Source: a virus. Taken from it: a stretch of DNA of 64,000 bases. Shown here one piece after another: positions 2,007-47,584 of this stretch. The translations under genes were made by a program, and so were the position numbers. Numbering within the stretch: position 1 is the first letter of the stretch; each line of letters begins with the position of its first letter. Below the pieces are notes generated by a model. The model saw only the letters and a list, made by a program, of their open reading frames with translations, searched no databases and was not told the origin of the DNA. The stretch is from IMG/VR virus record IMGVR_UViG_3300033049_000013, positions 1 to 64,000 of that record; one strand, given 5' to 3'.

Positions 2007-2477
2007 ATGCCAAAAGTAGAAATTGAAATTTTAGCAGGTGGTACTATGCCTACTAAAGCGCACACAGCAGACTCTTGTTACGATGTAGTAGCAACTAGGA
2101 TAGAACATAAACCTACTTGTATTGTATACTACTTGGGAATAAAAGTTAAGATTCCTAGAGGATGGGAAGGTGAGCTAAAATCTAGAAGTTCTATTCGTAA
2201 ATATCATTTACAGCAATGTAATGGTATTGGGACTATGGATGAGAATTATAGAGGAGAATGGGCTATTAGTTTTAATCTATCTCCACCTAACTTTATGTAC
2301 TTTAAACTACATAACTTACCTGACCCTGCCGATACTGACTTTAAGATATATGCAGTAGGCGATAAAGTAGGTCAGATATGCTTTAGGAAGAAAGATAAAT
2401 ATGCTGTAGCACAAGTATCACTGGTACAATCTAATACAGAGCGAGGAGAAGATGGACATGGTTCATCAGGAAAATAA
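2007..2477 (+). CDS. dut: dUTPase (trimeric dUTP diphosphatase)
   Basis: The enzyme hydrolyses dUTP to dUMP and pyrophosphate, keeping uracil out of DNA and supplying dUMP for dTMP synthesis. All five motifs of trimeric dUTPases can be traced in order: motif 1 AHTADSCYDV (about residues 18-27), motif 2 SRSS, motif 3 NGIGTMDENYRGEW with the uracil-site Tyr and the GEW turn, motif 4 VGDKVGQICF, and the glycine-rich C-terminal arm ERGEDGHGSSGK that closes over the active site. Motif 1 is slightly divergent (Ser-Cys where Ala-Gly is usual). Length 156 aa is normal. It follows the deoxyribonucleotidase-like gene, and a hairpin terminator lies directly after it. Confidence 0.92.
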   Translation: MPKVEIEILAGGTMPTKAHTADSCYDVVATRIEHKPTCIVYYLGIKVKIPRGWEGELKSRSSIRKYHLQQCNGIGTMDENYRGEWAISFNLSPPNFMYFKLHNLPDPADTDFKIYAVGDKVGQICFRKKDKYAVAQVSLVQSNTERGEDGHGSSGK

Positions 2478-2488
2478 TACATAATAAT

Positions 2489-2519
2489 AAGTAGGTAATC
2501 TTAGGGTTATCTACTTTTT
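2489..2519 (+). terminator. Intrinsic terminator after dUTPase
   Basis: A 10-bp stem (AAGTAGGTAA with TTATCTACTT, including one G-T pair) and an 8-base loop are followed by a T run that overlaps the end of the stem. It lies 11 bases after the dUTPase stop and 12 bases before the next ATG. It could end or attenuate transcription before the next gene. Confidence 0.65.
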
Positions 2520-2531
2520 AAACTATAAGAT

Positions 2532-3095
2532 ATGTTGAATTTAGGGTATTTGAAGGAAGGGAGTAAGATTAGTGAGCAACAATATTATACCATTAAAGCA
2601 ATTACGGGAAATACTATAACAGTTGTTAATGACTTGGGTAAGACTTTGACAATAGCTAAGGAGATAATCGAGAGAGATTGTTATTCAGCAGATCAGTTTG
2701 ACGATATTGTTCGAGTTACTAGAACGGAATTAGTAAATCATTTCTTAAATATTAAAGGTGAAGTATTCACTGTTAACTATAATAAGCAAGTTAATGCTAC
2801 TAAGACAGTTAAGAATGTATCTGATGCACTTATATTAATGGATAGTTATACTACTAAGAAAGATAAACTTTTTGTAGTTAAGACTCTAAAGAAACAACTA
2901 AAAGATGACCTTAAAGGCGAAGAACGTCTAGCTAAGGCGTATAAGACCAAAGTAGACTTTGAGAAGGGTCGTACTCTAGCTATTGATTTAGGTAAAGAAA
3001 AAGGAGAAGGTACGTATGATGGACGTACAATTCAAATAGACCATAGGAATTTAAATTGGTTTATTTGGAAGGGAACTAAGTATCAAGTGAAATAA
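2532..3095 (+). CDS. Hypothetical protein, 187 aa, Lys-rich
   Basis: The function is unknown. The N-terminal half (residues 1-60) looks like a small beta-rich domain, with the repeated pattern of short strands YYTIKAITGNTITVVNDLG. The middle (about 65-140) is alpha-helical and strongly basic. The C-terminus has a conserved-looking pattern, IDHRNLNWFIWKG, just before the end. It has no membrane segment. It follows the dUTPase terminator, and its TAA stop touches the ATG of the next gene, so the two are translationally linked. The basic charge would suit nucleic-acid binding, but that is only inference. Confidence 0.6.
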   Translation: MLNLGYLKEGSKISEQQYYTIKAITGNTITVVNDLGKTLTIAKEIIERDCYSADQFDDIVRVTRTELVNHFLNIKGEVFTVNYNKQVNATKTVKNVSDALILMDSYTTKKDKLFVVKTLKKQLKDDLKGEERLAKAYKTKVDFEKGRTLAIDLGKEKGEGTYDGRTIQIDHRNLNWFIWKGTKYQVK

Positions 3096-3659
3096 ATGAA
3101 TTACACGGTAGAAGAACGTGAATTAATATATAAATGTGCTTATGATTTAAGAGCAGTCGATATTCAACGGCTGCTTTTAGATTGTGGTTATAAGAGAACT
3201 TTAGAATCTATTACTAAAGTAATCAATAGAAAGATAGAAATTGATAAGGAGAAGCGGAGATTGCAGAATAAGATGAGAGCTGATAGAGATATAGTTAAAT
3301 ATAGGGCTAAATCACTCTTAAATGCCGCTAAATCAAGAGCTAGTAAGAAAGGCTTAGAATGTTCCTTAACTTTAGAATGGGTACATAAGAAGCTAAAATA
3401 TGGAGTATGTGCAGCTACAGGTACTCCGTTTGTATTTACACAATATGGTGAATGTAAAGAAACTAAAAAGTGTAATCCTTATGCTCCTTCACTTGATAAA
3501 ATCGACCCTAGTAAAGGATATACCGTAGAAAATACTCAAGTAGTTTTAGCTGCATTTAATAAGTTTAAAAGCGATATGGTGCAACATAAAGTAATTGGTA
3601 TAGCTAAATCTATAGTTAAATATCATATGAGCACAAGGCAGTTTGCAGTAAATGCTTAG
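3096..3659 (+). CDS. HNH-like (treble-clef) endonuclease family protein
   Basis: The C-terminal half has the layout seen in phage HNH-like proteins: GVCAATGTPF (a CxxTG knuckle), then NPYAPSLDKIDPSKGYT and ENTQVVLAAFNKFKSD. The Ser-Leu-Asp-x-Ile-Asp followed by GYTxEN and a final Asn-x-x-Lys is typical of these small nucleases. The N-terminal third (residues 1-60) is a helical, charged region that could bind DNA, and a Lys/Arg-rich helix links the two. The catalytic His of a canonical HNH is not obvious, so activity is uncertain. It begins directly at the stop of the gene before it and lies 53 bases upstream of the giant polymerase gene, a place where a homing-type endonuclease would be plausible. 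Confidence 0.6.
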   Translation: MNYTVEERELIYKCAYDLRAVDIQRLLLDCGYKRTLESITKVINRKIEIDKEKRRLQNKMRADRDIVKYRAKSLLNAAKSRASKKGLECSLTLEWVHKKLKYGVCAATGTPFVFTQYGECKETKKCNPYAPSLDKIDPSKGYTVENTQVVLAAFNKFKSDMVQHKVIGIAKSIVKYHMSTRQFAVNA

Positions 3660-3679
3660 ACAGTATATTGTATATTGGT

Positions 3680-3696
3680 TGTTATTGATAATAACA
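3680..3696. promoter_or_regulatory. Short inverted repeat in leader of the giant polymerase gene
   Basis: A perfect inverted repeat, TGTTATT-GAT-AATAACA, lies 17 bases before the ATG at 3713, in the 53-base gap after the HNH-like gene. It could be an operator or a small RNA hairpin near the ribosome site. There is no T run suited to a terminator. Function is inference from position. Confidence 0.35.
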
Positions 3697-3712
3697 CAAA
3701 ACAATCATAGCA

Positions 3713-6700
3713 ATGGCATGTCGTGTAGAAAGAAAAGCAAACACAGGTAAAATAGTAAACGTACTAAAGCCCAATGGATTAGTATCAGAAGTTTACAAGA
3801 AATTAAACTTAAAGTATAAGAATGCAGAGGTTGCATTAAGATACTATATGTTAGGATTCACAGAGGATTATATTGATTTCAATGTAAGTCCTAATACTCC
3901 TAGTAATATAAAGTATTTAGCAAAGGAGATAGCAGAGAAATCATCATTAAGGGGTACAGATAATGCTCTATTTATTAATGATGCACAACTTCGTGACATA
4001 GGAAACCAATTAGGAGAAATTCGAATGGATTTATATGTACAGGATATGCTAGGTAATGAATATATAGAACCTCAGTATAGAAATAAGGTAGCAAATCTGT
4101 TGAATCCTTTACTTAAGGAAGTAGAGAGTAGACCTATATTACAAGCATTACTGAATTCAGGTAAAGTAAATGATGTAGAGGCTGCCATTAGATTGGTAGG
4201 AGATCAAAGTGATATATTTAACAAAGTGTTAGAAATAGAACAAGATGTCTTAGAAGTCTTAGAAACTCCAAGCATACTAAGTAAGTATACTGAAATTACA
4301 CAGGATAGAGTAAGTTCAGAAGTTACATTAGATTCAATATTAGGTAGTATTACTAGCTCTATATTTAATCCAAATGGAATTCATGCAGCACTAACTACTG
4401 GATATGTAGCAAATGAATATGAACCTAGTTTCGAAAAACTAGAAAGGTTTATAGATAAGTTACCATCTAATAGTATAACTACTATTCTTCCAAAATTTGT
4501 AACTGAAGCATTAAATAATAAAACAGAAGGAATCAATACTGATGAGTATGCTAGAAGCAGACAATTAGGATTTGATTCTGATATGGCACTTACTACTGCG
4601 TTAGGAGCTAGTCCGATTAAAACAATCGAATCTCCTAGAAGTAGTTTAGTGGAAATAGAGAATGTAAAGAAAAGATTAAAATTATTGTTCGGTAATAATG
4701 TACAAGTTAGTACAGCGTTAGAACAAACACTAGATAACATAGGTCAAGAAGGACTTCCAGGTGGATTCTTTCTAGATAATGTAATCTATTTACATGATGC
4801 AGATGTTGCAGGACATGAGGCTTTTCATAAAGTATTTCATACACTGTTAACAGATAAACAGGCTACAGTGCTTCTTAATGAAGCAAAGAAGAATTTAAAC
4901 TACAGTAAAAAGCAATTGAATAATAAAATTGCCGACTTAATACTACAAGTACCTGCATATAGTGAACTAAGTAGAGAGAGATTAGAAAATCTTGTCTACG
5001 AAGAATATATGGCAGATGAATATCAAGAGTTTTTTACTAACAATAAGACTCCAGAGAATTGGCTTATGTCACTTTTCAATCTTATTAAGAATGTATTTTC
5101 GAGCGTATGGGGTAACCGCACCCAGTTGGAAGCTTTATTCCATAAAATCAACAATCGTGGATTCGCATTTACTAAGCCAAAAAGCAATAAGTACGCTATG
5201 GAACTACCAGTTTTCAAGTTACTTACCATTGGAAAAAGTAAAGATGCTTCAAATAGAACAATTGATATTGTAGCATCAGAATCAGACTCCAATGCACTCA
5301 TTTATGAGATGGCAGGAAGGTTGTATGAAATTATTAATACAACTAAGCCTGAAGGTAGTGTATTGCAAATTGCAGAGGATGAAACAATTACGTTAACTCC
5401 TAGCGATGCACTTAGGAATCCCGAAGAAGCTGTATATAATATTATGCGTGCAAGATCGTATGAATATTCAGAAGAAAACAATATAGACTTATTAGAACAA
5501 TTAGAAGACGAAGAAGAGAAATTAGACAAACTAGTTGGTCAATTAGAGACCAAAGAACAGATGTATAGTCCTAAATTTTCAAGTCAATCTAATATTTCTA
5601 ATGGTGTACTTGTTTGGGAAGAAGTTCAGAAATTGTTCCAAATATTTGGAACTGACTATCTGACAGAGAAGAATGAAGTTGCTGCTGAAAATAAAATGAC
5701 TGCAGAATCACTGGAAATGCAAAATAAAAGCGCTTATGAGTATGACCCTCTTGAATTAAGAGATAAAGACTTAAGAACTTTTATGGGTTTTATACTGTAT
5801 GAAAAAACAGATGAACTTACTGGTAATAAAATAAAGGTAGCTATAGATTCTTCTAGAGTTTATAGTAATTTACTAGTTGCCATGTCATCTAAAGAATTAC
5901 ATGAAACACCCTTTAATACTACACAACAACCTTTCTTGACAACATTAGCTTATTATGCTAAAGATAATGACGAAACTAGAGCTTTCTATAATAAACTTAT
6001 GGAAATTAGTGGAGGAAAGTCTGACCATAACTTAGTTAACTTAGTTAGAAAGAGTTTGGATAACATGAGAATATCATTTACCCAACTATTACAAGATCCT
6101 AATACTGGAAACTTTCAGTTAGTATCTGCTGCAAACATAGATGATGTGGTTGCACAGTTAGATACATGGGATAAAAATTGGAATGATAGCGGATTATCAG
6201 ACAATTATAATAGTAAAGCAAGGAGAAAAGAGAATACAAAAGCATTAAATACTCTATATGAGTTATTAGACCCTACAAAGAATGGAGTAAAGACAATTAT
6301 GTCTTTAGATAATCCTATGATTTTAGATTCTACTACTGGAGATTATGTATTAGATACAAATACTAAGGATAATGTTATTGATAAATTTATTAATGGGTTT
6401 ACAGCAAATAATGGTAGAGAAATCAAATCATTGTTTAAGTTAACAGGTATAGATTTATCAAGAGGATTTATTAGATATAGTATATTGAGAGAATACGATT
6501 TAATTGCTACAAGTAATATAACTGAGTACACGCAACTACAAGATATAATAAGTAATAAGGATTATCAAGGATATAAAGAATTAGCTGAAAGTGAGATTGA
6601 ACATCTTACTAGAAACGATATTCGTGAGATGGTAAGAATATTAGGTAAAAATTATAAGTCTGATGAAGTTGAAGAATATGTAAAAGAAACTACAGGTGTA

Positions 6701-36518: not shown

Positions 36519-39389
36519 TTATTTTCCCTTGAATTGTATTAATTCGTTTGGATCAACTTGACCTGACATTACCGCTTGATAGGCTGCTGGACCATAGTTT
36601 TTATAAATGTTTTGCATTACTTGCCATTCAAATTGATTTTGTCTAGCATTTCCTAGTTGTCTACCAGTATCTACTATACCTGTACCAAATTGAGTAACAG
36701 CTTTATTTCTAAGTGAATCCCTAGCTAACTCTGCAGCTCTATTTTCACTTCTTGCAGATTCCTCAGCTCTTCTACGGTCTTCACCTCTAGCTACTTGTGT
36801 CTTATCCGCAGCTTCAGCTAATTGAATATCAATAGCTTGTTCTCTCATTGCTAAATCTCTAGATTTATCACTCATAGTAGAATATAAGTTAGCACGTAAA
36901 GCATTCTGTGCCTGTGCATTACCTACTTGATTTTGAATACCTCTAGTAGCTGCTGTATATCCAGCGTGTAATGGTCTCTTATCTAAGTTAGATCTACGAC
37001 TTCTTTGTCTATGTAGTACTTTAGCTAACTCAGGATTATACTTAGCTGATGTATAAGCTGGTGGCTTAAAAGATTCTGCTAAATTATAGATTGCTGGAGT
37101 AAATTCACCAGCTAATTGCAACCATGCATCATCAGTTAATGAACCTAAATTACCTAAAAATCCATCACCACCACGTCCAGTATTACGTCCAGTATTATCT
37201 GGCTTACTATGTCTTCTACGTTTAGATTTAAACTCAGGAGCATCTACAAGAGCTACTTGTTCATCATATAAATCAGCATTATAAATATCTTCAGGAAAAT
37301 ACCCTTTTACATTTAGAGGAGCAATAGCATCACCAGGAGCAGTAACAGGAGAACCATTACCACTAAAACCAGAAGTATTATTACTACTATTAGTTGGAGT
37401 TTGTGTTAATGGATTACTTTGTAGAAAACTACTTATATCTTCTCCATAGCCAATACTACTCATAGGTTGTCCTCTAAAGTCATTTTGACTAAATAAACCT
37501 TGACTTAAATCCATTTCTTCATCCCCTGTGTCACCACCTATTTGATATTGTCTTCTTGAGTATCCTCCGAATTCTCTATTAGGTGTAAGCGATTCATAAA
37601 ATGGAGATGGTAAAAGGTCAATTTCATTATCTTCTATAGAATTAGGATCTATTGGGAAATTATTAGCAGCGCCACTACTTATTGGTGCTGTTTGATTAGG
37701 TGCAACTGGATTAGGAAAAGGCTCAGACATTGGTTCATTAATAGTAGGTGCAACTTGTGAAGTACCTCTACTCTTTACTCTAGGTAAGTTAGCTAACCTA
37801 TCTATTCTATCTAACTCAGCTAAATCCATTCTAGCACGTCTATTACCTTGTCTTGTAGTTACATCAGCAGTTCTATTAGCTTCTTGTGCTGCATTAATAT
37901 TAGCAGCATGTTCAGCTCTATCAGCACTAGTTGTAGCACGTTCTATGCGTCTATTTAACTTCTCAGCAGCAGACTCATTTTTCTTTTGTTGGATTGCTGC
38001 TTTACGTCTAGCACGTTCTTGTGCCAGTCTACCTCCTGTAGGGTCAGTAGTTACATCTGCAGTACCTTGTACAGACGGATGTTGTTTAGTTACTTGTTCG
38101 TTTAATGCTGCTTGCTTTTCAGCAGTAGTTTGATTACTATTACTAGGTGTTTGTTTTCCAGTAAATAAATCATCTGCAACTGAATTTATCTCTACCCATT
38201 GGTCTTTAATGAAAGCAATATCACGTGGATTACTAAATCCTGAAGCTAATCCATCATTTAATTCCTGTGCCTCTAACAGTTGGTCTACTACACTTTGCTT
38301 GGCATTAGCACTATTATCATTATTAGCACCTGGAGTAGTATTAGTTGTAGCATTGGCTTTTGCTGCCTTAGTTGCTGCTTTCTTCTTACCTGATGTAGGA
38401 GTATTGCCAGCTAGTAAATCACCTGCAGCCTTTGCTCCTGCTATATTTGCACTAGTTGCTATATTAGCTAAATTACCTGTACTTGGGTCAACTCCATTAA
38501 AGAATGGTCTTGCATGTGCAGCTTCTACTTGTTGCTGTGCAATCTCTTGAGCAGTTGGTGGACCAAACATTTCTCCATAATTAGGGAAATATTGTGATAA
38601 AATGTTACCATTATCATCATCTAATTCGCCTGGTAATGGTGCATTACGTTCAAAACCTCCTACATAAGCATTAGCTTCCTCTGCTGTACCAGTAGTATAT
38701 TTACTGTACGGATTTACAGCTGGAGGAACAGGAGGATCAGGAGTTACTGTTGTACCTTTGGGTAACATTCCCTCAATCTTTACAGGTTGTCTAGGAGCAG
38801 ACGCATTAGCAGCTAACTCCTCAGTAATAGCTTCAGTAAACCCACTATACCCAGCTTCATTATTATATCTTACAACATCATCATACGTAGCTAAATATTG
38901 ATTGTAAGCTTCTAAATCTTCTGTAGCTAAGTTATCTGGATTAAAGTTAGGATTTTGCTGTACATGATTAAACCACCTATCAAAGTTAGCTCTAGTTTCA
39001 GGGTCATCTGTAACTCCTGGATAAATAACACTCCAGTCTAATACACTGTCAGTAGGTATAGTAGGAGTAGTTGGACCCGACCCAGGTGTTCTTAATCCTA
39101 ATTGTGCTTTTATTCTTTTCTCGTACACGTTTTGTCCTTTAACAGTAAAGTCTCCTCCATTTGCTTTTGCAATTCCTGAGTCTGTAATTCTACCGTCGTC
39201 ATCGAATCCATAGTACATTACATCATCATTCATACCTTTCATAGTCATATTCATTTCATTTCTGCCTCCTCCTGGAAATATCATAGATTCGTAATTGCTG
39301 TCCTTAAGACCAGTACGAGCCATTCTAGAATTCCTTGCAACAGGGGCAGTTCCTCCATCTTGTTTTAAGTCTCTTATGTTAAATCTCAT
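36519..39389 (-). CDS. Cargo-type virion protein, 956 aa, low complexity and coiled coil
   Basis: Rich in Ala, Asn, Thr, Pro and Arg, with few conserved motifs, as is common for internal virion proteins. A QDGG motif is present at about residues 10-14 and RRQYQIGGDTG near residue 615, both matching a motif shared by neighbours. Residues about 450-535 form a basic Ala/Arg/Glu-rich helix (ERARRKAAIQQKK), and the C-terminal 150 residues form another (EDRRRAEESARSEN). Between them is a Ser/Asn/Pro-rich, probably disordered region. It has a 90-base leader containing a hairpin and an A8 tract directly before the ATG. It is followed after 24 bases by the 1,073-aa gene. Function is inferred from place and composition. 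Confidence 0.7.
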   Translation of the reverse strand: MRFNIRDLKQDGGTAPVARNSRMARTGLKDSNYESMIFPGGGRNEMNMTMKGMNDDVMYYGFDDDGRITDSGIAKANGGDFTVKGQNVYEKRIKAQLGLRTPGSGPTTPTIPTDSVLDWSVIYPGVTDDPETRANFDRWFNHVQQNPNFNPDNLATEDLEAYNQYLATYDDVVRYNNEAGYSGFTEAITEELAANASAPRQPVKIEGMLPKGTTVTPDPPVPPAVNPYSKYTTGTAEEANAYVGGFERNAPLPGELDDDNGNILSQYFPNYGEMFGPPTAQEIAQQQVEAAHARPFFNGVDPSTGNLANIATSANIAGAKAAGDLLAGNTPTSGKKKAATKAAKANATTNTTPGANNDNSANAKQSVVDQLLEAQELNDGLASGFSNPRDIAFIKDQWVEINSVADDLFTGKQTPSNSNQTTAEKQAALNEQVTKQHPSVQGTADVTTDPTGGRLAQERARRKAAIQQKKNESAAEKLNRRIERATTSADRAEHAANINAAQEANRTADVTTRQGNRRARMDLAELDRIDRLANLPRVKSRGTSQVAPTINEPMSEPFPNPVAPNQTAPISSGAANNFPIDPNSIEDNEIDLLPSPFYESLTPNREFGGYSRRQYQIGGDTGDEEMDLSQGLFSQNDFRGQPMSSIGYGEDISSFLQSNPLTQTPTNSSNNTSGFSGNGSPVTAPGDAIAPLNVKGYFPEDIYNADLYDEQVALVDAPEFKSKRRRHSKPDNTGRNTGRGGDGFLGNLGSLTDDAWLQLAGEFTPAIYNLAESFKPPAYTSAKYNPELAKVLHRQRSRRSNLDKRPLHAGYTAATRGIQNQVGNAQAQNALRANLYSTMSDKSRDLAMREQAIDIQLAEAADKTQVARGEDRRRAEESARSENRAAELARDSLRNKAVTQFGTGIVDTGRQLGNARQNQFEWQVMQNIYKNYGPAAYQAVMSGQVDPNELIQFKGK

Positions 39390-39479: not shown

Positions 39480-41033
39480 TTAGTATAAATCAAAATCTCC
39501 TGTCATAGAATCATAGTTAGACACTCGTCCTTGTACAGTTCTACCTCCTTTCTCAAATTTTACAAATTGACCAGGATTAACACCTTGAATTACAATTTCG
39601 TCTTGATATTTAAAGTCAGGAAAACCTCTATCATTTCTACCACCATGCATGAATTGAGCCACCTCATCTTCAGGAGACATCATACTCATATCATCCATTG
39701 GTGCTTCGAGTTGTTCTTGTGGTTGACCTTGTTGTTGACCTTGTTGAGGTTCACTACCTAAATCTTGATTAGGGTCAGAATTTTGTTCAATTAATTGTCC
39801 TAAGACTTGACCTATCTTACCTGTATGTAAGTTATTTAATGGAGTATTTTTAATTTCCTCCATAGAAATACCTTGTTGAAGTAATTCTTTTTCAAATCCT
39901 TCAGAGAAAATATCAGTAGGATTACCTTGTAGCTGTTCAGGACTTAAAGGCTTTAATGCATTAGGTATCATTTCCATTACTTGTTGAGCAACTTGTGCTC
40001 CTATATTCATAGAATCATTACCTACAGAATCTACCTCTTGCATATCTTGAGGTGTTGTCTCAGGTAATTGCATTGCTTGCTCTTCTTGTAATGCTGGATT
40101 CATTTCTGCTTCCATCATACCACCTTCTTGATAAGAACGTCTTGAGTAAGGACTCATGTCTTCACCTATGTTATTCTCTACATTGTAAGTATGTCTATCC
40201 TTGGGAGATAATCTACTAGGGTCTTGATAAGAATTACCACCTAATTGCATAACAATATTATCTTGATATTTGAAATCAGGGAATCCACGGTCATTAATAC
40301 CACCTCCATATGCCCTATTTCGTCTAGGCATAAATCCACCATTACGTTGAATAGGTACACCATTTTGAGGTGGTGACGGTTGATTTAAATCTGGTTGAGC
40401 TGGCATCTCAGCAGGTTGTTGTGAAGCTGCTAATTGAGGTAATTCTAAATTAGCCACAGCTTGCTGGTCATTACCTGCTAAAGTTTCAGCTTCATTAGGA
40501 TTTTCTTGCATAATAAAATCCATTACAGAACCAAACTCTCTACCTTTTTTCTTTAATAGGTCGTGTAATCCCTTCATAAACCTACCTTCATTTTGTCTCT
40601 GTTCCATCATAGACAATTCTTCTTCTAACATTGCTTTAGCTTTAGGGTCGTTTAAATATCTATCTCTAGGATTGTTTTCGGCTTTACTGAAATATTTCAT
40701 ATAAGGTTTCATATCATCTGCCTGTGATTTACCATATTTCTTTCCCGCAGGAAATCCTTTTTCGGTAATCTTAGCAGAAGCTATATATACGGATTCATCA
40801 GTCTTCATAGGTATACCCTCAGTACCACCTGCGTTTTTTTGACCATGCCTAGCACCATTAGCTAGAAAGCCTTTAGAAGAGACTTTACTAGCACTAGCAC
40901 CACCAAACATAGACACATCGCTTGGGTTACCAACAACGACTTCACCACCTTCAATTTCAACATCTACAGCATCACCACCGTCTTCTTTAAAAGTAAGAGG
41001 ATAGGGACTATTACGTCCCCCCTCTTTTAATAC
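39480..41033 (-). CDS. Frameshift extension (517 codons) of the upstream cargo gene; predicted 932-aa fusion
   Basis: This open frame begins inside the end of the 416-aa gene and has no ATG until 40910 (a GTG lies at 40916). The 41 codons between the slippery site and that GTG still look like real protein: EGGRNSPYPLTFKEDGG and DAVDVEIEGGEVVVGNP lead smoothly into the Gly-rich region FGGASASKVSSKGF and ESVYIASAKI. That matches a VEIEGGE...GG...IxS pattern I associate with Bacteroidota-phage structural proteins. The rest is a helical segment (about 60-140), a Gln/Pro-rich stretch, and two copies of NDRGFPDFKYQD. I read it as the -1 frameshift product of the preceding gene. Independent translation from GTG/ATG would give about 478 aa and cannot be excluded; nor can a one-base assembly error. 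Confidence 0.75.
   Translation of the reverse strand, partial: VLKEGGRNSPYPLTFKEDGGDAVDVEIEGGEVVVGNPSDVSMFGGASASKVSSKGFLANGARHGQKNAGGTEGIPMKTDESVYIASAKITEKGFPAGKKYGKSQADDMKPYMKYFSKAENNPRDRYLNDPKAKAMLEEELSMMEQRQNEGRFMKGLHDLLKKKGREFGSVMDFIMQENPNEAETLAGNDQQAVANLELPQLAASQQPAEMPAQPDLNQPSPPQNGVPIQRNGGFMPRRNRAYGGGINDRGFPDFKYQDNIVMQLGGNSYQDPSRLSPKDRHTYNVENNIGEDMSPYSRRSYQEGGMMEAEMNPALQEEQAMQLPETTPQDMQEVDSVGNDSMNIGAQVAQQVMEMIPNALKPLSPEQLQGNPTDIFSEGFEKELLQQGISMEEIKNTPLNNLHTGKIGQVLGQLIEQNSDPNQDLGSEPQQGQQQGQPQEQLEAPMDDMSMMSPEDEVAQFMHGGRNDRGFPDFKYQDEIVIQGVNPGQFVKFEKGGRTVQGRVSNYDSMTGDFDLY
39592..40300 (-). repeat. Internal duplicated 16-codon segment (two copies)
   Basis: Copies at 39592-39640 and 40252-40300, exactly 660 bases (220 codons) apart, encode NDRGFPDFKYQDEIV and NDRGFPDFKYQDNIV. 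DNA identity is partial with many third-position changes, so the protein sequence is being kept. The copies flank the Gln/Glu-rich middle of the frameshift extension. Confidence 0.8.
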
Positions 41034-41039
41034 TTTTTT
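40995..41039 (-). promoter_or_regulatory. -1 programmed ribosomal frameshift signal
   Basis: The canonical slippery heptamer A AAA AAG (41039-41033) lies in the correct phase of the 416-aa gene (codons GGA AAA AAG TAT TAA). After a 6-base spacer comes a hairpin: AAGAGG (41026-41021) with CCTCTT (41000-40995), and GGGAC (41019-41015) with GTCCC (41008-41004) around a GTAATA loop, with a small internal loop between. The arrangement matches the bacterial dnaX-type signal. The downstream -1 frame is open for 517 codons. Confidence 0.82.
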
Positions 41040-42277
41040 CCGTATCGACCGCCCATTTCGTACATTCTATTTCTATTTGTAGCACGTCCTCCCATTCTAT
41101 AAGAAGGCATCATACCCATTCCATCATCCATCATTCCACTAGAATAAGGACGAGTCATTCCACCCATTTGCATTCTGTCGTAATCTCTACCATAAGGGTC
41201 ATTTCCTCTCATGTATTGATTAGTCATTCCGCCCATAGCGTATCTTGAACTCTGAGGCATATTGTTAAGGTCTCTACCTCTTTTATCAATACCTCTGTTA
41301 TTAAAACGATTAGGAGCATCCATTCGCATGTCCATCATACGTTGTCTTTGCTCTGGAGTCATAAGAGACTCTCTATACTCTTGCGGATTAGGCGATGCTT
41401 CGAATCCTCTAGTTAAATCACTATCGTCTTGCATCATCTGTGCTCTTTCAGCCTCAGCTTGCATCATTGCCATTTTCTCTGCTTTTTCTCTAGCCATACG
41501 TCTAGATACTCTACCCATGCCTGTTCCGCCACCATCTTGGTACATTGAACGACCACCATAATTTCTCATCATGCCTTTTAAATAAGTTTTATGTTCAGGA
41601 TTCCACCATGTCTGAGGATGTCCCATTCCATTTTGTTTCATACTGTTCATTTTAGTTAAATTTGAATCATAGTTATTACTATGTCTATAGTTATTTCCAT
41701 TAGTACGCATTCCATCTGCAGCTACTAACGGATTTAGGGAAGTACCTAAACTTCCAACATTCTCTGCTTTCTGACCTTCAGCTACTTGTTCTTGTTGTTG
41801 AGCAGCTTGTTGTCTATTAGCAATAATAGAACTAGCAGCACCTGCAACAGCACCAAGTGGTCCAGCAGTTGCAAAACCTTCCCCAGCACCACTTAAAGTA
41901 CTACCAAGCATATTTTGCCCACTACTAGCTCCTTTAGTATCATCTTGTATTGCAGAACCTACTATACCTGTAGCAAGTCCAGCAGCTTTTCCAGTAATCT
42001 GTCCAGCTCTTTTATAATTAAAAGGTTTACCCTCTGAATCTAATTCAATTTCAGGATCATTATTCATGTAGTCATCTCCTGGTTCACTAACTCCAGTTTC
42101 TCCACCAATCTGTCTTCGTTTTCTAGTAGTTTCCATTAATAGATTAATTTCACTAGGACGCATGTTACGAAAACCTTCATAAGATAAATTAGTAATTGCT
42201 CCTCGTTTTTTAAGCGAATCGTACAGTCCTCTTCTTCTATCAATTGTACCACCTTGTTGATACTTAAATCTTGTCAT
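41027..42277 (-). CDS. Cargo-type protein, 416 aa, Met/Gly/Arg-rich; zero-frame product
   Basis: The N-terminus carries FKYQQGGTIDRR, followed by RRQIGGETG near residue 55, members of the QxGG motif family in this block. Residues about 85-170 are a Gly/Ala-rich region (GAGEGFATAGPLGAVAG) that could be membrane-active. The C-terminal half is unusual: Met, Gly, Arg and Tyr dominate, with repeated units such as YAMGGM, MQMGGM, YRMGGR and YEMGGR. The gene lies just after the muzzle gene, where crassviruses encode cargo. It stops at TAA six bases after a slippery sequence, and most likely a fraction of ribosomes shift into the -1 frame to make a 932-aa form. Composition makes homology search unreliable. 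Confidence 0.75.
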   Translation of the reverse strand: MTRFKYQQGGTIDRRRGLYDSLKKRGAITNLSYEGFRNMRPSEINLLMETTRKRRQIGGETGVSEPGDDYMNNDPEIELDSEGKPFNYKRAGQITGKAAGLATGIVGSAIQDDTKGASSGQNMLGSTLSGAGEGFATAGPLGAVAGAASSIIANRQQAAQQQEQVAEGQKAENVGSLGTSLNPLVAADGMRTNGNNYRHSNNYDSNLTKMNSMKQNGMGHPQTWWNPEHKTYLKGMMRNYGGRSMYQDGGGTGMGRVSRRMAREKAEKMAMMQAEAERAQMMQDDSDLTRGFEASPNPQEYRESLMTPEQRQRMMDMRMDAPNRFNNRGIDKRGRDLNNMPQSSRYAMGGMTNQYMRGNDPYGRDYDRMQMGGMTRPYSSGMMDDGMGMMPSYRMGGRATNRNRMYEMGGRYGKKY

Positions 42278-42289
42278 GTTAAATGTATT

Positions 42290-45200
42290 TTATCTTATAG
42301 ATAAGTTAGTTAAGAACGTCATTATCTCTGTTTTGATTTTATAGTCTGCATCAGTATTATTAAAAAATAATCTAACTGCTACATATTTATCTCTAAATCT
42401 AGCCTGCTTATAAATAGACTTTGTACCATCCACACTTAGCGGATTTATAACTCTATCTAAGTAACCTTGTCCTTCTGTATTAAAGGAAGTTTGTAAATTA
42501 CTCCAGTTAGAAGTAAAGAAAGGAATACTACCATTTGTTACTTCATCCCTAAATCTATTAAATCTCCAGTAATTTTCTGTCCTATCTATTAAAGTTTGTG
42601 TTAGAGGTAACGTAATATTTTGATAACTGTTAGGTATTTTAACTATAAGGTTTCTTAAATTAGAACATTGTTTACCATTATACACGTAAAACCTATCAAA
42701 AGTAACATCTTCCACTCTATAAGAGTAGTCGGAGTCAGCCTCGTATATATAACTATCTGTTACAAATTGTGTACTATAATAAACCTTTTCTGTAGCAGGT
42801 GATTGGTCTAAACTAATATCTATAATGTGGTCATACTTTACACCATAGTAGGTTTGAAAGTTTCTTTCTATATGTTTCCAGACTACTGTATTATTATCAG
42901 TTCTATTTATAAAACTGTAGAAGTTAGTATTGTCATGGTACATATAATTTGGTTGATAGCTATGGAAGCTTACCCAAAAATTACCATCTAATGAATAACT
43001 CATAGTCCAACTTTTATTCTCAAACCATGCAGTGTCATTCATACCTATTTCTACAAATTCTGAACCATTCCAGTAATGCCATGCGATGTAATCAAATTCA
43101 TCGAATATTGCATATAGAGTATTAACTACTCCGCTTACTGGTAAAGTACCTAAATAGCCTCCAAATAATATAGTATTATTATCATCATCTGTTGCACGAA
43201 TTAAATAATCCTTTTTATGTAATACAATTCTATTCATTCTAGCATCATAAACAGCTTGGAATCCTACAGAGTTATCTGTGGAAGTACCACGTACTGTATA
43301 TTCAATACCAGCAGTTAGCATATAAAATTGATTAATAAATTCTAAAGATAAATTTGAGTGAAACCATTGTTCCATTCCTAGTTTAGATACTTCATTTAAT
43401 CCTTTACCAAATAAGAATATTCTACCACCAGCTTCATCTACATAGAATGTACCGTATTGCGTCCCTACGACAGTGTATTGACTACCTGAACCTCCATATC
43501 CATATTGTACAGAAACAAGTCTCTGCGGTGGAATAGAACCTATTTGTCCTGTTCCTATGAAAATAGTGGCTGCATTACTATCTAATTGTTGAGGTCTAGT
43601 CTGTACTGAAAATAATGCTTTCTCAGTATGTACATATAATTGATCTTTTTCTAAGAACATTGCAGTAATAGGACCAGATTCACTAGGAATAGGAAATTTA
43701 TTATTAGGCAATATTATTTTAAAATTATCAGCAATATCTTGAGCTTGTCCAGGAATTGAGTAGTAGATACTATTCGGTTCTCTTCCACTACAATCATCAC
43801 AGTAATTATAATTATCTGATACAGGGAAACTAGGAGTCTCATTATTTTGTTTACCAAAGTCTTTATTGTAATCATACTTAAATTCTCTGTAACCAAAGTT
43901 TGCTTCACTTACTTCTGTAGTATTAGTTAGCTCCACATCAGACCATAAAGTATCTTTATTGAAAGTTGAGCCACTTCTACCTACATTAAGATGGGTAAAC
44001 CTATCAAAATATTTAGGAGCATATTCAGATTCTGGTACTGCTGAATGTGCTAAAGAACTATTAATATTATCCGACTCTACAAAACCTTCCATAGATGATG
44101 CATTTGATTTCATATTATTAAGGTAATCACCATCACCTGAGATTTTAGACCATGTTTTAACATTTCTTACTTTAGTAATAAAAGTATCTCCACCTTTAAT
44201 AAGTTCATCATTAAATATAGCAGTACGAGGTATAAAACAAGTGTTCAATCGTAAGTATGTAATATTCTCTAAAAACCCAAACACATCTGTATTATTTTTT
44301 ATAGACACATAGAAGTTAGATACACTATGTCCTCTTAAGGCATCTTGTGCATCATCTACACTAGATTTTTTATATCCGTAAATAATATCACTTACTTGAC
44401 TTAATGCAGGATTCATTACCATAGGAAAAGGTAATTTAGTTTGATAGAAACTAGCTACTTGCCCAAATGAATCTGTAGTTAATTGTGTAGGGATTGAAAA
44501 CTGTGCAGCCCCACCAATTGAATGCCAGGGTACAATTGCTGCTCCCCTAATTTCTCTTTGAAATCCTAAGTATGCTAAATCTGTAGGTATTAATGTAGTG
44601 CTAGAACCTGGTGAATTTGAATAAAGATTCTGAGCTACAGCAACATGATTGAAATCACAATGCGTATAGCTGTCGTAATAATTAGTTCTACCTAATAGTA
44701 AATCACCTAATTCTAACTCTACTTGTTGCACAACAAATAATTCACGTTCTCCTGAATTTGCAGTTAAGTTAGATGGATGATAACTCATTACAGGACATTC
44801 TATTTTAATGAAATCTCCTGACGGTACACTTAAATCAAAGACGGTTGAAGGTGAAACGTACTCCACAAAATTACTTTCTGTCCCATGGAAGTGGTCATTG
44901 TCTGATGCAGAAAATCCTATGTCTGGTCTAAAATCTGGATTACTACTGTATCCATAACCATCATAAGTAGGTAATGAACTAGTAAAAGATATGTCTGCTC
45001 TAATGCCATCACTAATTGTATAAGAATCTTCACGTATCCTACCTACTGGAGGTACACCTGGAAGTCCTGGTAATAGAGCAAAATCATAAGTAAAGAATCC
45101 TGTAAGTAAATTAAATTTTATTTCTGGAAACCATATACGTGCATATCCACCTGCATTAGCTAAAGCAAAAGCCCTAGTATAAAATGTAGGTACATAGTTA

Positions 45201-47584
45201 TTTCTCCACATGTATCCTTTATCTATAATGGTCTTATTTTCAGGAGTTCGTTTACCATACACAATATAATGCCCACGTATGCTATTTCTTAATTTTGTAG
45301 GCATATTAGCATACACCTCAGTCATATCGACTATTAGACCTATCTTATTTAAAGCTATTCGCCTAAATACATTTGGATCTACAGTAGAAGGTATATTGTT
45401 AGTTGTTACCCAATCTCTTGTAGTTAATCCCATTTGATTTTCTTGATAGCCATAAACACCTGCATCTCCTCCACAATCAGGTATTCTATGATGTCTTATT
45501 GGTTGTCCTACTAAATTAGCTCCACCAATACTAGTAGCATCAAATACTGGTACTCCACTACAATCTTTATTAGTAGTGTATATATTATTAGAATGTTCAT
45601 AATATCCCATATAACCTTCTATAGTAGTATCCGTATTAGTACCCGTGGTTACAAAAGTATTATGTACTTTCCATCTAGGTATTGCTGTACAATCTAGAAA
45701 ATCAAAACTACTTTCATTTAGGAATAAACCAACATTTCCACCAGCAACATATACATCAACTCTACTACCTCCTGTTATTTCATGGTAAGAAACACCAACA
45801 GTATTACCTGATGTAGACACTCCATCTGAATCATAATAGAATATCTGTAAACACATAATGTTTTTAGAAACATCGTTATATGAAAAACCTAATGTATTAT
45901 CAGCAGTAGTTAAGAATTTGAAGGTTGTATCTACAAAATAAGAATCTCCTCCTCCTAGTATAGTAATACGAACGAGTGCTCTATCATTTGTGTCCAGAGC
46001 AAGTGTAAATTCACCTGTACTACCTGTAAGTAAACTAACTGTGAATGTAGTACTAAATTTAGCAGAAGTTTCATTTACTTCAGTACACGCTAATGTATCT
46101 AATAAATGAGTTACATTACTATAACCTACTCTAGTATCTTCATCTCCACTTTGTATTTCTGCATCAGGAGTAATTGTTAACGGTCGGTCATCCCATCTAT
46201 TTACTAATGGTAAGTTACCTCGTGAGATGTGTATATTCCTGCTATTCAAGTTAGCAATAGGAGTTAAGTCATTACCATCGAAGTCTTCATTTAAAGGTCT
46301 ACCAGGCGTATGTACTGCTGGCAATTCTGTACCATTATTAAGAACAAACACTGTACCTAGAGATATAATCTCATCTCTCATATGTGTTTTACCATCAAAA
46401 ATTATAACACTATTTCTATCTGCAAATTCTTGACCTACATTAGGAGATTTACTATTAACAACATAGTCTTTATACATTCTCCATTTAGTCTTAGCTCTCA
46501 AGTTAGTTCTTTGTAGTACTGCTAAGTCTTCATTTAAATTAGCTACATTTCCTAATAATAATCTATTATCAATAATTTCGTGTGCTCTTACACCAGTAAA
46601 TGGTATTATTGGCACAGTTACTTCAGATAAACTAGATATAGTATGACTAGTACTATCAAATCCTAAATAAGTATACTCGGCAGTACCAATGTTATTATCT
46701 ACAACAATAGGTATACTATCCAATATAAATACTTCGTCAATATTGCTTGTACCTTGTATAGCAGATAATACAGCTAGTTGTACAAATCTAAATGTAGGAT
46801 CTAAATCAGTTAAATTCAATTTAATACTTTTGTTAGTAATAGTATCTATTGATTCTCCATCCGCAATATTACTGTTTGTAGATTCTGTGTATACAAATAT
46901 AGGGTAACTAGCAGGAGACCAGTTAGTCCCATTACGTTGACTATCTAAGTACCTCATTACGAATTGATGGCTACCACTAGGTATAGAACCTCCAGCATCT
47001 CTTACTACTTCTAACTTTAAACATCCAGGATTAAAAGATAAGAAGTGATTAAATTTATCACAATTCCAAGCTGTTAAATAGTTAGTACCTAGATTGGCAG
47101 TATCTATTGTAAATAATGGATTTCCATTACTATCCAATGCTAAGTAACTATCTAAGTTATCTAAGTTAAGCGCTTTGTACGAAGTTATACCATCAGTGAA
47201 ATAAACTATTCGCTCACATCCTCCTACAATTCTAGCTCTAGTAGTTAATTGTCTATGGCTTTTAAATCCAATACAATTAGTTTTAACGGATACTGCAAAA
47301 TCACAATTCATAGGGTCATGAATACCTATAATAGAATCTGTATCATTTGTAAAAAATAGTACAAACTTATTATCAGGTAGTATTTGTGCTCCGATTAACG
47401 TATAGTTATCTTCACTGTAATTGATACATATTTCATTACCTACTTCATTAGTTATAGATGAAGCATCTCCATCCCAAGAACCAAATAAAGCATTTAATGC
47501 AAAATTCCATGTACCTTTAGGTTGTTGCTTAGGACTCGCTTGTGTGAACATTCCTTTTACTAAAGGAGTCGATTCTTTTTTCAT
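42290..47584 (-). CDS. Muzzle / tail-stabilisation protein (P22 gp10-like position), 1,764 aa
   Basis: In crassviruses the large beta-rich protein encoded between the tail-tube/connector genes and cargo genes forms the muzzle at the tail tip, and is related in role to P22 tail-stabilisation protein. Here the length, the position and the beta-strand-rich sequence with many Thr, Ser, Asn and Tyr fit. The N-terminus (KGMFTQASPKQQPKGTWNFA followed by NEVGNEICINY) is of the conserved type that opens such proteins. Short repeating strand patterns, for example in residues 50-130, suggest propeller blades. No enzymatic motif was seen. The C-terminus (DADYKIKTEIMTFLTNLSIR) is compact. It begins 14 bases after the previous gene. 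Contact with the host surface is inferred from the family. Confidence 0.78.
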   Translation of the reverse strand: MKKESTPLVKGMFTQASPKQQPKGTWNFALNALFGSWDGDASSITNEVGNEICINYSEDNYTLIGAQILPDNKFVLFFTNDTDSIIGIHDPMNCDFAVSVKTNCIGFKSHRQLTTRARIVGGCERIVYFTDGITSYKALNLDNLDSYLALDSNGNPLFTIDTANLGTNYLTAWNCDKFNHFLSFNPGCLKLEVVRDAGGSIPSGSHQFVMRYLDSQRNGTNWSPASYPIFVYTESTNSNIADGESIDTITNKSIKLNLTDLDPTFRFVQLAVLSAIQGTSNIDEVFILDSIPIVVDNNIGTAEYTYLGFDSTSHTISSLSEVTVPIIPFTGVRAHEIIDNRLLLGNVANLNEDLAVLQRTNLRAKTKWRMYKDYVVNSKSPNVGQEFADRNSVIIFDGKTHMRDEIISLGTVFVLNNGTELPAVHTPGRPLNEDFDGNDLTPIANLNSRNIHISRGNLPLVNRWDDRPLTITPDAEIQSGDEDTRVGYSNVTHLLDTLACTEVNETSAKFSTTFTVSLLTGSTGEFTLALDTNDRALVRITILGGGDSYFVDTTFKFLTTADNTLGFSYNDVSKNIMCLQIFYYDSDGVSTSGNTVGVSYHEITGGSRVDVYVAGGNVGLFLNESSFDFLDCTAIPRWKVHNTFVTTGTNTDTTIEGYMGYYEHSNNIYTTNKDCSGVPVFDATSIGGANLVGQPIRHHRIPDCGGDAGVYGYQENQMGLTTRDWVTTNNIPSTVDPNVFRRIALNKIGLIVDMTEVYANMPTKLRNSIRGHYIVYGKRTPENKTIIDKGYMWRNNYVPTFYTRAFALANAGGYARIWFPEIKFNLLTGFFTYDFALLPGLPGVPPVGRIREDSYTISDGIRADISFTSSLPTYDGYGYSSNPDFRPDIGFSASDNDHFHGTESNFVEYVSPSTVFDLSVPSGDFIKIECPVMSYHPSNLTANSGERELFVVQQVELELGDLLLGRTNYYDSYTHCDFNHVAVAQNLYSNSPGSSTTLIPTDLAYLGFQREIRGAAIVPWHSIGGAAQFSIPTQLTTDSFGQVASFYQTKLPFPMVMNPALSQVSDIIYGYKKSSVDDAQDALRGHSVSNFYVSIKNNTDVFGFLENITYLRLNTCFIPRTAIFNDELIKGGDTFITKVRNVKTWSKISGDGDYLNNMKSNASSMEGFVESDNINSSLAHSAVPESEYAPKYFDRFTHLNVGRSGSTFNKDTLWSDVELTNTTEVSEANFGYREFKYDYNKDFGKQNNETPSFPVSDNYNYCDDCSGREPNSIYYSIPGQAQDIADNFKIILPNNKFPIPSESGPITAMFLEKDQLYVHTEKALFSVQTRPQQLDSNAATIFIGTGQIGSIPPQRLVSVQYGYGGSGSQYTVVGTQYGTFYVDEAGGRIFLFGKGLNEVSKLGMEQWFHSNLSLEFINQFYMLTAGIEYTVRGTSTDNSVGFQAVYDARMNRIVLHKKDYLIRATDDDNNTILFGGYLGTLPVSGVVNTLYAIFDEFDYIAWHYWNGSEFVEIGMNDTAWFENKSWTMSYSLDGNFWVSFHSYQPNYMYHDNTNFYSFINRTDNNTVVWKHIERNFQTYYGVKYDHIIDISLDQSPATEKVYYSTQFVTDSYIYEADSDYSYRVEDVTFDRFYVYNGKQCSNLRNLIVKIPNSYQNITLPLTQTLIDRTENYWRFNRFRDEVTNGSIPFFTSNWSNLQTSFNTEGQGYLDRVINPLSVDGTKSIYKQARFRDKYVAVRLFFNNTDADYKIKTEIMTFLTNLSIR

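What the first reader, a model, noticed from the sequence alone, without database searches (positions are those of the whole stretch)
40995..41039. Programmed -1 ribosomal frameshift fusing two cargo ORFs into a 932-aa protein
Seen: the 416-aa gene ends in codons GGA AAA AAG TAT TAA, so A AAA AAG is in the exact phase needed for a -1 slip. A 6-base spacer follows, then a hairpin with six outer and five inner base pairs, GC-rich in an AT-rich genome. The -1 frame is open for 517 codons, has no ATG until 40910, and the codons between slip site and first possible start encode plausible, conserved-looking protein. Known: this is the architecture of the dnaX-type signal. Inference: two forms of a virion cargo protein (416 and 932 aa) are made at a fixed ratio. 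Frameshifting in phages is classically known in the tail G/GT genes, so use in a crAss cargo gene would be notable.
Basis: partly seen in the sequence, partly recalled or inferred. Interest (0 to 1): 0.88.

Follow-up and report, generated by a model that had tools for sequence, protein, structure and literature searches.

The report
Ribosomal frameshift inside crassvirus ejection gene
In one environmental crAss-like phage the gene for a protein packed in the virion and probably injected into the host is broken into two reading frames joined by a textbook ribosome-slip signal, so the phage probably makes a short and a long form of a protein that nearly all examined relatives make in one piece.

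Summary
The 416-aa ORF (42277-41027, - strand) ends GGA AAA AAG TAT TAA. An in-phase A_AAA_AAG (41039-41033), a 6-nt spacer and a 12-bp hairpin (41026-40995, -17.2 kcal/mol) precede a -1 frame that is open to 39480 and has no ATG/GTG/TTG before GTG 40916. The signal stands out: the next best of 58 in-phase heptamers in the window has a -8.0 hairpin, and only 8 of 10,000 synonymous recodings fold as well. In 1.8 Mb of crassvirus-related DNA no other frame overlap has both slip site and hairpin.

The two ORFs are one gene, just downstream of the muzzle gene, the place of cargo protein C1 (gp45) of PhiCrAss001. Three relatives align with the -1 frame from two codons after the slip site, upstream of any start. 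Nearly all homologues read are one continuous ORF, so the 932-aa form is ancestral and the 416-aa form is new. In PhiCrAss001 gp45's N-terminal part sits in the tail and a C-terminal domain binds the portal; the slip site seems to fall between these regions.

No close relative covers the junction, so conservation, efficiency and use of the short form are untested. Main rival: a missing A (A7 read as A6).

The parts
41027..42277 (-). Frame-0 ORF, 416 aa: N-terminal half of the C1-like cargo protein (Gly/Ala-rich hydrophobic stretch about residues 92-150, then a Met/Gly/Arg-rich tract), ending at the TAA inside the spacer
41033..41039 (-). Slippery heptamer A_AAA_AAG, in phase with frame 0
41027..41032 (-). 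6-nt spacer TATTAA containing the frame-0 stop codon
40995..41026 (-). Stimulatory hairpin: 6 outer pairs, 5 inner pairs plus one G-U, 6-nt loop, 2-nt bulge; -17.2 kcal/mol
39480..41036 (-). -1 frame part of the 932-aa product (518 codons from the slip site), beginning K-VLKEGG; holds the EIEGGE / probable portal-binding domain and ends NYDSMTGDFDLY
42290..47584 (-). Muzzle protein gene directly upstream (PF25731, 3.9e-37), which fixes the synteny

Best explanation
The C1-like cargo (ejection) gene of this crassvirus is read by a dnaX-type -1 programmed ribosomal frameshift. Ribosomes translate the first 415 codons; tRNA-Lys in the P and A sites slips from AAA/AAG to AAA/AAA at A_AAA_AAG while the hairpin 6 nt downstream holds the ribosome. 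Ribosomes that slip go on for 517 more codons (932-aa product); the rest read TAT and stop (416-aa product). The 932-aa protein is the ancestral full-length cargo protein. The 416-aa product is the N-terminal, probably tail-side part without the probable portal-binding domain. Shown here: the signal, its statistical excess, the lack of another start, homology across the junction, and continuous ORFs in relatives. Inferred: that slippage occurs, its rate, and any role of the short form.
For: Exact in-phase heptamer, 6-nt spacer and hairpin. The hairpin is an outlier among the window's in-phase heptamers and against synonymous recodings (8 of 10,000), and uses rare GGG (4% of Gly) and CCC (2.4% of Pro) codons. 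Among 1,013 ORFs of 150 aa or more in 1.8 Mb of loci (some redundant), 8 heptamers sit in a -1 overlap; the other 7 have an ATG close by and hairpins no better than -2.8. The -1 frame aligns with three relatives from KEGGR, two codons after the slip (K14, G16, P21, E37, E39, G41, E42 invariant), all upstream of the first start at GTG 40916. Homologues are one ORF: G005 666 aa, G073 1195 aa, FpV4 gp30, PhiCrAss001 gp45 842 aa and its gut relatives. No other large gene of the record is broken.
Against: No relative has the signal. No record closer than about 55% MCP identity covers the junction, so there is no covariation or conservation test. No significant upstream Shine-Dalgarno-like stimulator. 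The host and its tRNA-Lys set are unknown, and no tRNA was found in the record. No expression data.
Confidence: 0.8

Rival explanations
1. A one-base sequencing or assembly error (A7 read as A6), or a one-base deletion in part of the population, breaks an ordinary continuous gene; the hairpin is incidental.
For: Relatives have a continuous ORF and there is one record only. Losing an A from GGA AAA AAA G would by itself create A_AAA_AAG.
Against: A hairpin this stable in place is very unlikely by chance (8 of 10,000 synonymous recodings). Deleting one base from each of 159 homopolymer runs gave 8 in-phase heptamers, none with a hairpin beyond -8.7. The rest of the 87-kb record is unbroken.
Confidence: 0.12
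2. Transcriptional slippage at the A6 run adds an A in part of the mRNA, so that ordinary translation gives the long form.
For: It would give the same 932-aa product, and the run is homopolymeric.
Against: Six A is short for polymerase slippage (my knowledge), and a spaced stable hairpin with a stop in the spacer is the ribosomal type.
Confidence: 0.04
3. Two separate proteins: the downstream ORF starts on its own at GTG 40916 or ATG 40910, or by re-initiation after the TAA.
For: GTG 40916 is a possible start. G062 (L186) shows a C1-like gene split inside the same domain with an overlapping ATG.
Against: It would lose the conserved KEG..P..EIEGGEVV stretch upstream of 40916; there is no start codon near the TAA; it would not explain the slip site and hairpin.
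Confidence: 0.04

Closest known systems
Bacterial dnaX -1 frameshifting (tau/gamma; PMC5009743)
   Same: A_AAA_AAG in phase, stem-loop a few bases downstream, shared N-terminal part with a C-terminal extension in one product. The review describes a minority of dnaX genes in which the long form comes from the shift and the frame-0 stop directly follows the site (candidate: a Chlorobium), which is the arrangement here.
   Different: A phage virion cargo gene; no convincing upstream Shine-Dalgarno stimulator; in E. coli dnaX the long form is the unshifted one.
Phage G/GT tail-chaperone frameshift and frameshift-extended capsid/tail proteins (lambda, T3, A2, PSA; PMC5009743)
   Same: A phage structural-module gene giving a short and an extended product from one start.
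   Different: Here the extension is half of the protein and includes an ancestral domain; the gene is the post-muzzle C1 cargo gene, not a chaperone, capsid or tail-tube gene.
PhiCrAss001 cargo protein 1, gp45 (PDB 7qog and others; PMC10172136)
   Same: Same position directly after the muzzle gene; weakly similar helical region within the portal-bound domain (profile E 0.0011); Gly/Ala-rich hydrophobic N-terminal segment.
   Different: gp45 is a single ORF of 842 aa; here it is split by a -1 shift, and a region resembling its C-terminal part seems to lie in the next gene (956 aa; by eye).
csoS2 carboxysome frameshifting (PMC5009743)
   Same: Two length forms of a structural protein, proposed to sit in different places of the particle; stem-loop without upstream stimulator.
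   Different: Carboxysome gene; there the shift makes the short form.

Membership tests
dnaX-type -1 programmed ribosomal frameshift | X_XXY_YYZ heptamer in phase with frame 0 within the overlap of the two frames | tested here: met
   A_AAA_AAG at 41039-41033, 13-codon overlap
dnaX-type -1 programmed ribosomal frameshift | Stable RNA structure 5-9 nt downstream, beyond chance | tested here: met
   6-nt spacer, -17.2 kcal/mol; next best -8.0; 8 of 10,000 synonymous recodings
dnaX-type -1 programmed ribosomal frameshift | Upstream Shine-Dalgarno-like stimulator about 10 nt 5' (present in E. coli dnaX; not universal, so not counted as defining for -1 frameshifting in general) | tested here: not met
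   best pairing GGGCGG, -6.4 kcal/mol; 8% of random stretches do as well
dnaX-type -1 programmed ribosomal frameshift | Downstream frame coding, homologous across the junction, without its own start | tested here: met
dnaX-type -1 programmed ribosomal frameshift | Signal conserved among close relatives | tested here: inconclusive
   no close relative covers the junction; distant relatives lack it
dnaX-type -1 programmed ribosomal frameshift | Measured -1 product that depends on slip site and hairpin | not testable with these tools
   needs a reporter or mass spectrometry
Crassvirus cargo protein C1 (gp45) | Gene directly downstream of the muzzle gene in the structural module | tested here: met
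   PF25731 muzzle at 42290-47584, E 3.9e-37; same order in PhiCrAss001
Crassvirus cargo protein C1 (gp45) | Portal-bound domain similar to gp45 425-552 | tested here: inconclusive
   profile match to 480-547, E 0.0011 but probability 20%; low-confidence model, no fold match
Crassvirus cargo protein C1 (gp45) | N-terminal hydrophobic/transmembrane segment placed in the tail | tested here: inconclusive
   Gly/Ala-rich segments seen, no significant pairwise match
Crassvirus cargo protein C1 (gp45) | Single continuous ORF (a common trait of the members looked at, not a definition) | tested here: not met
   continuous in gp45, cr85_1, cr116_1, DAC15, p-crAss gp47, crAss002, cr108_1, G005 and G073; split here

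The most novel reading that the evidence does not exclude
The frameshift sets the ratio of two working forms of the ejection protein: a short form that only fills the tail lumen or forms the membrane channel, and a long form that spans from the tail to the portal. That would be a crassvirus ejection machine built from two isoforms of one gene.
Probability: 0.35. Interest if true: 0.75.

Novelty: new member of a known kind. Interest (0 to 1): 0.58.

Why it matters
Programmed frameshifting in tailed phages is known mainly from tail chaperones and extended capsid or tail proteins. No report of it in Crassvirales turned up in the library searched. The slip site seems to fall between the parts of C1 that, in PhiCrAss001, lie in the tail and at the portal, so it makes a specific, testable prediction about how many C1 chains bridge tail and capsid. 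It also warns that annotation of the gene after the muzzle can miss half of the protein.

Tried and rejected
Searches for close relatives: P0001 in phages and viral contigs (none), the C-terminal YDSxTGDFDL pattern (only G005), the EIEGGEVV pattern (only G005), MCP in GTDB genomes (none). MCP relatives at 80-88% are fragments that do not reach the junction. Profile search of 50 muzzle-bearing records was insensitive, so genes were read by synteny instead. The split in G019/G020 (L043/L044) is +1, and these records have further breaks in the muzzle gene; judged assembly error. The G062 split (L186) has its own overlapping ATG; not a -1 slip. Terminator reading of the hairpin: the scan flags the opposite strand only, with no U-run on the coding strand. 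Rfam: no match. Structure model of the junction domain: pLDDT 50, no PDB match. Direct BLAST of the 416-aa part with gp45: not significant.

Full report
What is there. The window is part of an 87,216-base IMG/VR virus record with a crassvirus major capsid protein (PF23898, 61295-62872), ring protein 1 (PF24228, 47599-48636) and muzzle protein (PF25731, 42290-47584). Directly downstream of the muzzle gene, on the - strand, is a 416-aa ORF that ends GGA AAA AAG TAT TAA. The heptamer A_AAA_AAG (41039-41033) is in the right phase; six bases later begins a hairpin of six outer and five inner pairs plus a G-U (41026-40995). The -1 frame is open from 41066 to 39480, overlaps frame 0 by 13 codons, and has no ATG, GTG or TTG before GTG 40916.

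More than chance. In 31 genes of the window there are 58 in-phase XXXYYYZ heptamers, three of them A_AAA_AAG. With hairpins 4-9 nt downstream, this site scores -17.2 kcal/mol and the next -8.0. On the coding strands of 63 kb only 11 places fold to -17 or better. When the peptide of the -1 frame is recoded with the window's codon usage, 8 of 10,000 samples fold as well; the hairpin uses GGG and CCC, which make up 4% and 2.4% of Gly and Pro codons.

One gene, not two. Three distant relatives (G005/L042, G020/L044, G073/L183) align with the -1 frame from two codons after the slip site; invariant residues (K, G, P, E, E, G, E) lie upstream of the first possible start. In G005 the gene is one 666-aa ORF with the same C-terminus (NYDSRTGDFDLI against NYDSMTGDFDLY). 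In G073 it is one 1195-aa ORF. Flavobacterium phage FpV4 gp30 and the corresponding gut-crassvirus genes are also single ORFs. Exceptions are the poor-quality G019/G020 assemblies and G062, whose gene breaks inside the domain with an overlapping ATG. In several of the more distant environmental records no homologue of this domain could be recognised with confidence, so the survey is not a count.

Which protein. By position it is the counterpart of PhiCrAss001 gp45, cargo protein C1. A profile of the junction domain matches gp45 480-547 with E 0.0011 but only 20% probability; this lies inside residues 425-552, which bind the portal in the virion, while residues 214-245 lie in the tail barrel and a transmembrane helix is predicted at 136-158 (PMC10172136). 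The identification as C1 therefore rests mainly on synteny. The slip site falls between the N-terminal Gly/Ala-rich part and the portal-type domain.

How it most likely works. Slippage of tRNA-Lys from AAA/AAG to AAA/AAA, stimulated by the hairpin, gives the 932-aa full-length protein; non-slipping ribosomes give 416 aa. The full-length form is what relatives make, so the long form is very probably needed and the short form is the new product. Whether the short form is useful or only tolerated cannot be told. A review notes both classes, frameshifting for extra products and frameshifting that compensates an indel (PMC5009743); the strong hairpin fits either, once selection acted on it.

What is missing. 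No record closer than about 55% in the capsid protein covers the junction, so neither conservation nor covariation could be tested. A wrong base call at the A run remains the main rival, but the hairpin would then be a coincidence: deleting one base at each of 159 homopolymer runs never gave a comparable signal, and the record has no other broken large gene. There is no significant upstream Shine-Dalgarno stimulator.

Noticed in passing
L186 (G062, IMGVR_UViG_3300035698_005399) 737-2050 and 2034-4304: The C1-like gene is split inside the same GPSH/EVEGGE domain, with the second ORF starting at an ATG that overlaps the first stop (ATGCTAAATAA): a second, different split of this gene, or an indel.
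   Followed up: partly
window 39480-40400 (- strand); L042 2669-5050 (- strand): The motif NDRGFPDFKYQD[NE]IV occurs twice in the downstream half. A C-terminal module (V/I)KF..GG....G.V.NYDS.TGDFDL(Y/I) ends the C1-like proteins of the window and G005; a looser copy (IKYQSGGMIKEGVVKSYNPYTGQIELY) ends the next gene of G005, so it may be a shared cargo tail.
   Followed up: partly
window 36519-39389: The 956-aa ORF carries near its end a stretch (YNLAESFKPP...GIQNQ) that by eye resembles the C-terminal part of FpV4 gp30 and PhiCrAss001 gp45, so C1 parts may have moved to the next gene in this lineage.
   Followed up: no
L043, L044 (G019, G020): These records have several frame breaks in the muzzle and cargo genes, probably assembly errors; they should not be used as evidence of recoding.
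   Followed up: partly
window 3713-33271: Two giant ORFs (4688 and 2541 aa) on the + strand converge on the 2566-aa ORF of the - strand; a strong hairpin followed by a T run lies in the gap after the 4688-aa ORF (17824).
   Followed up: no
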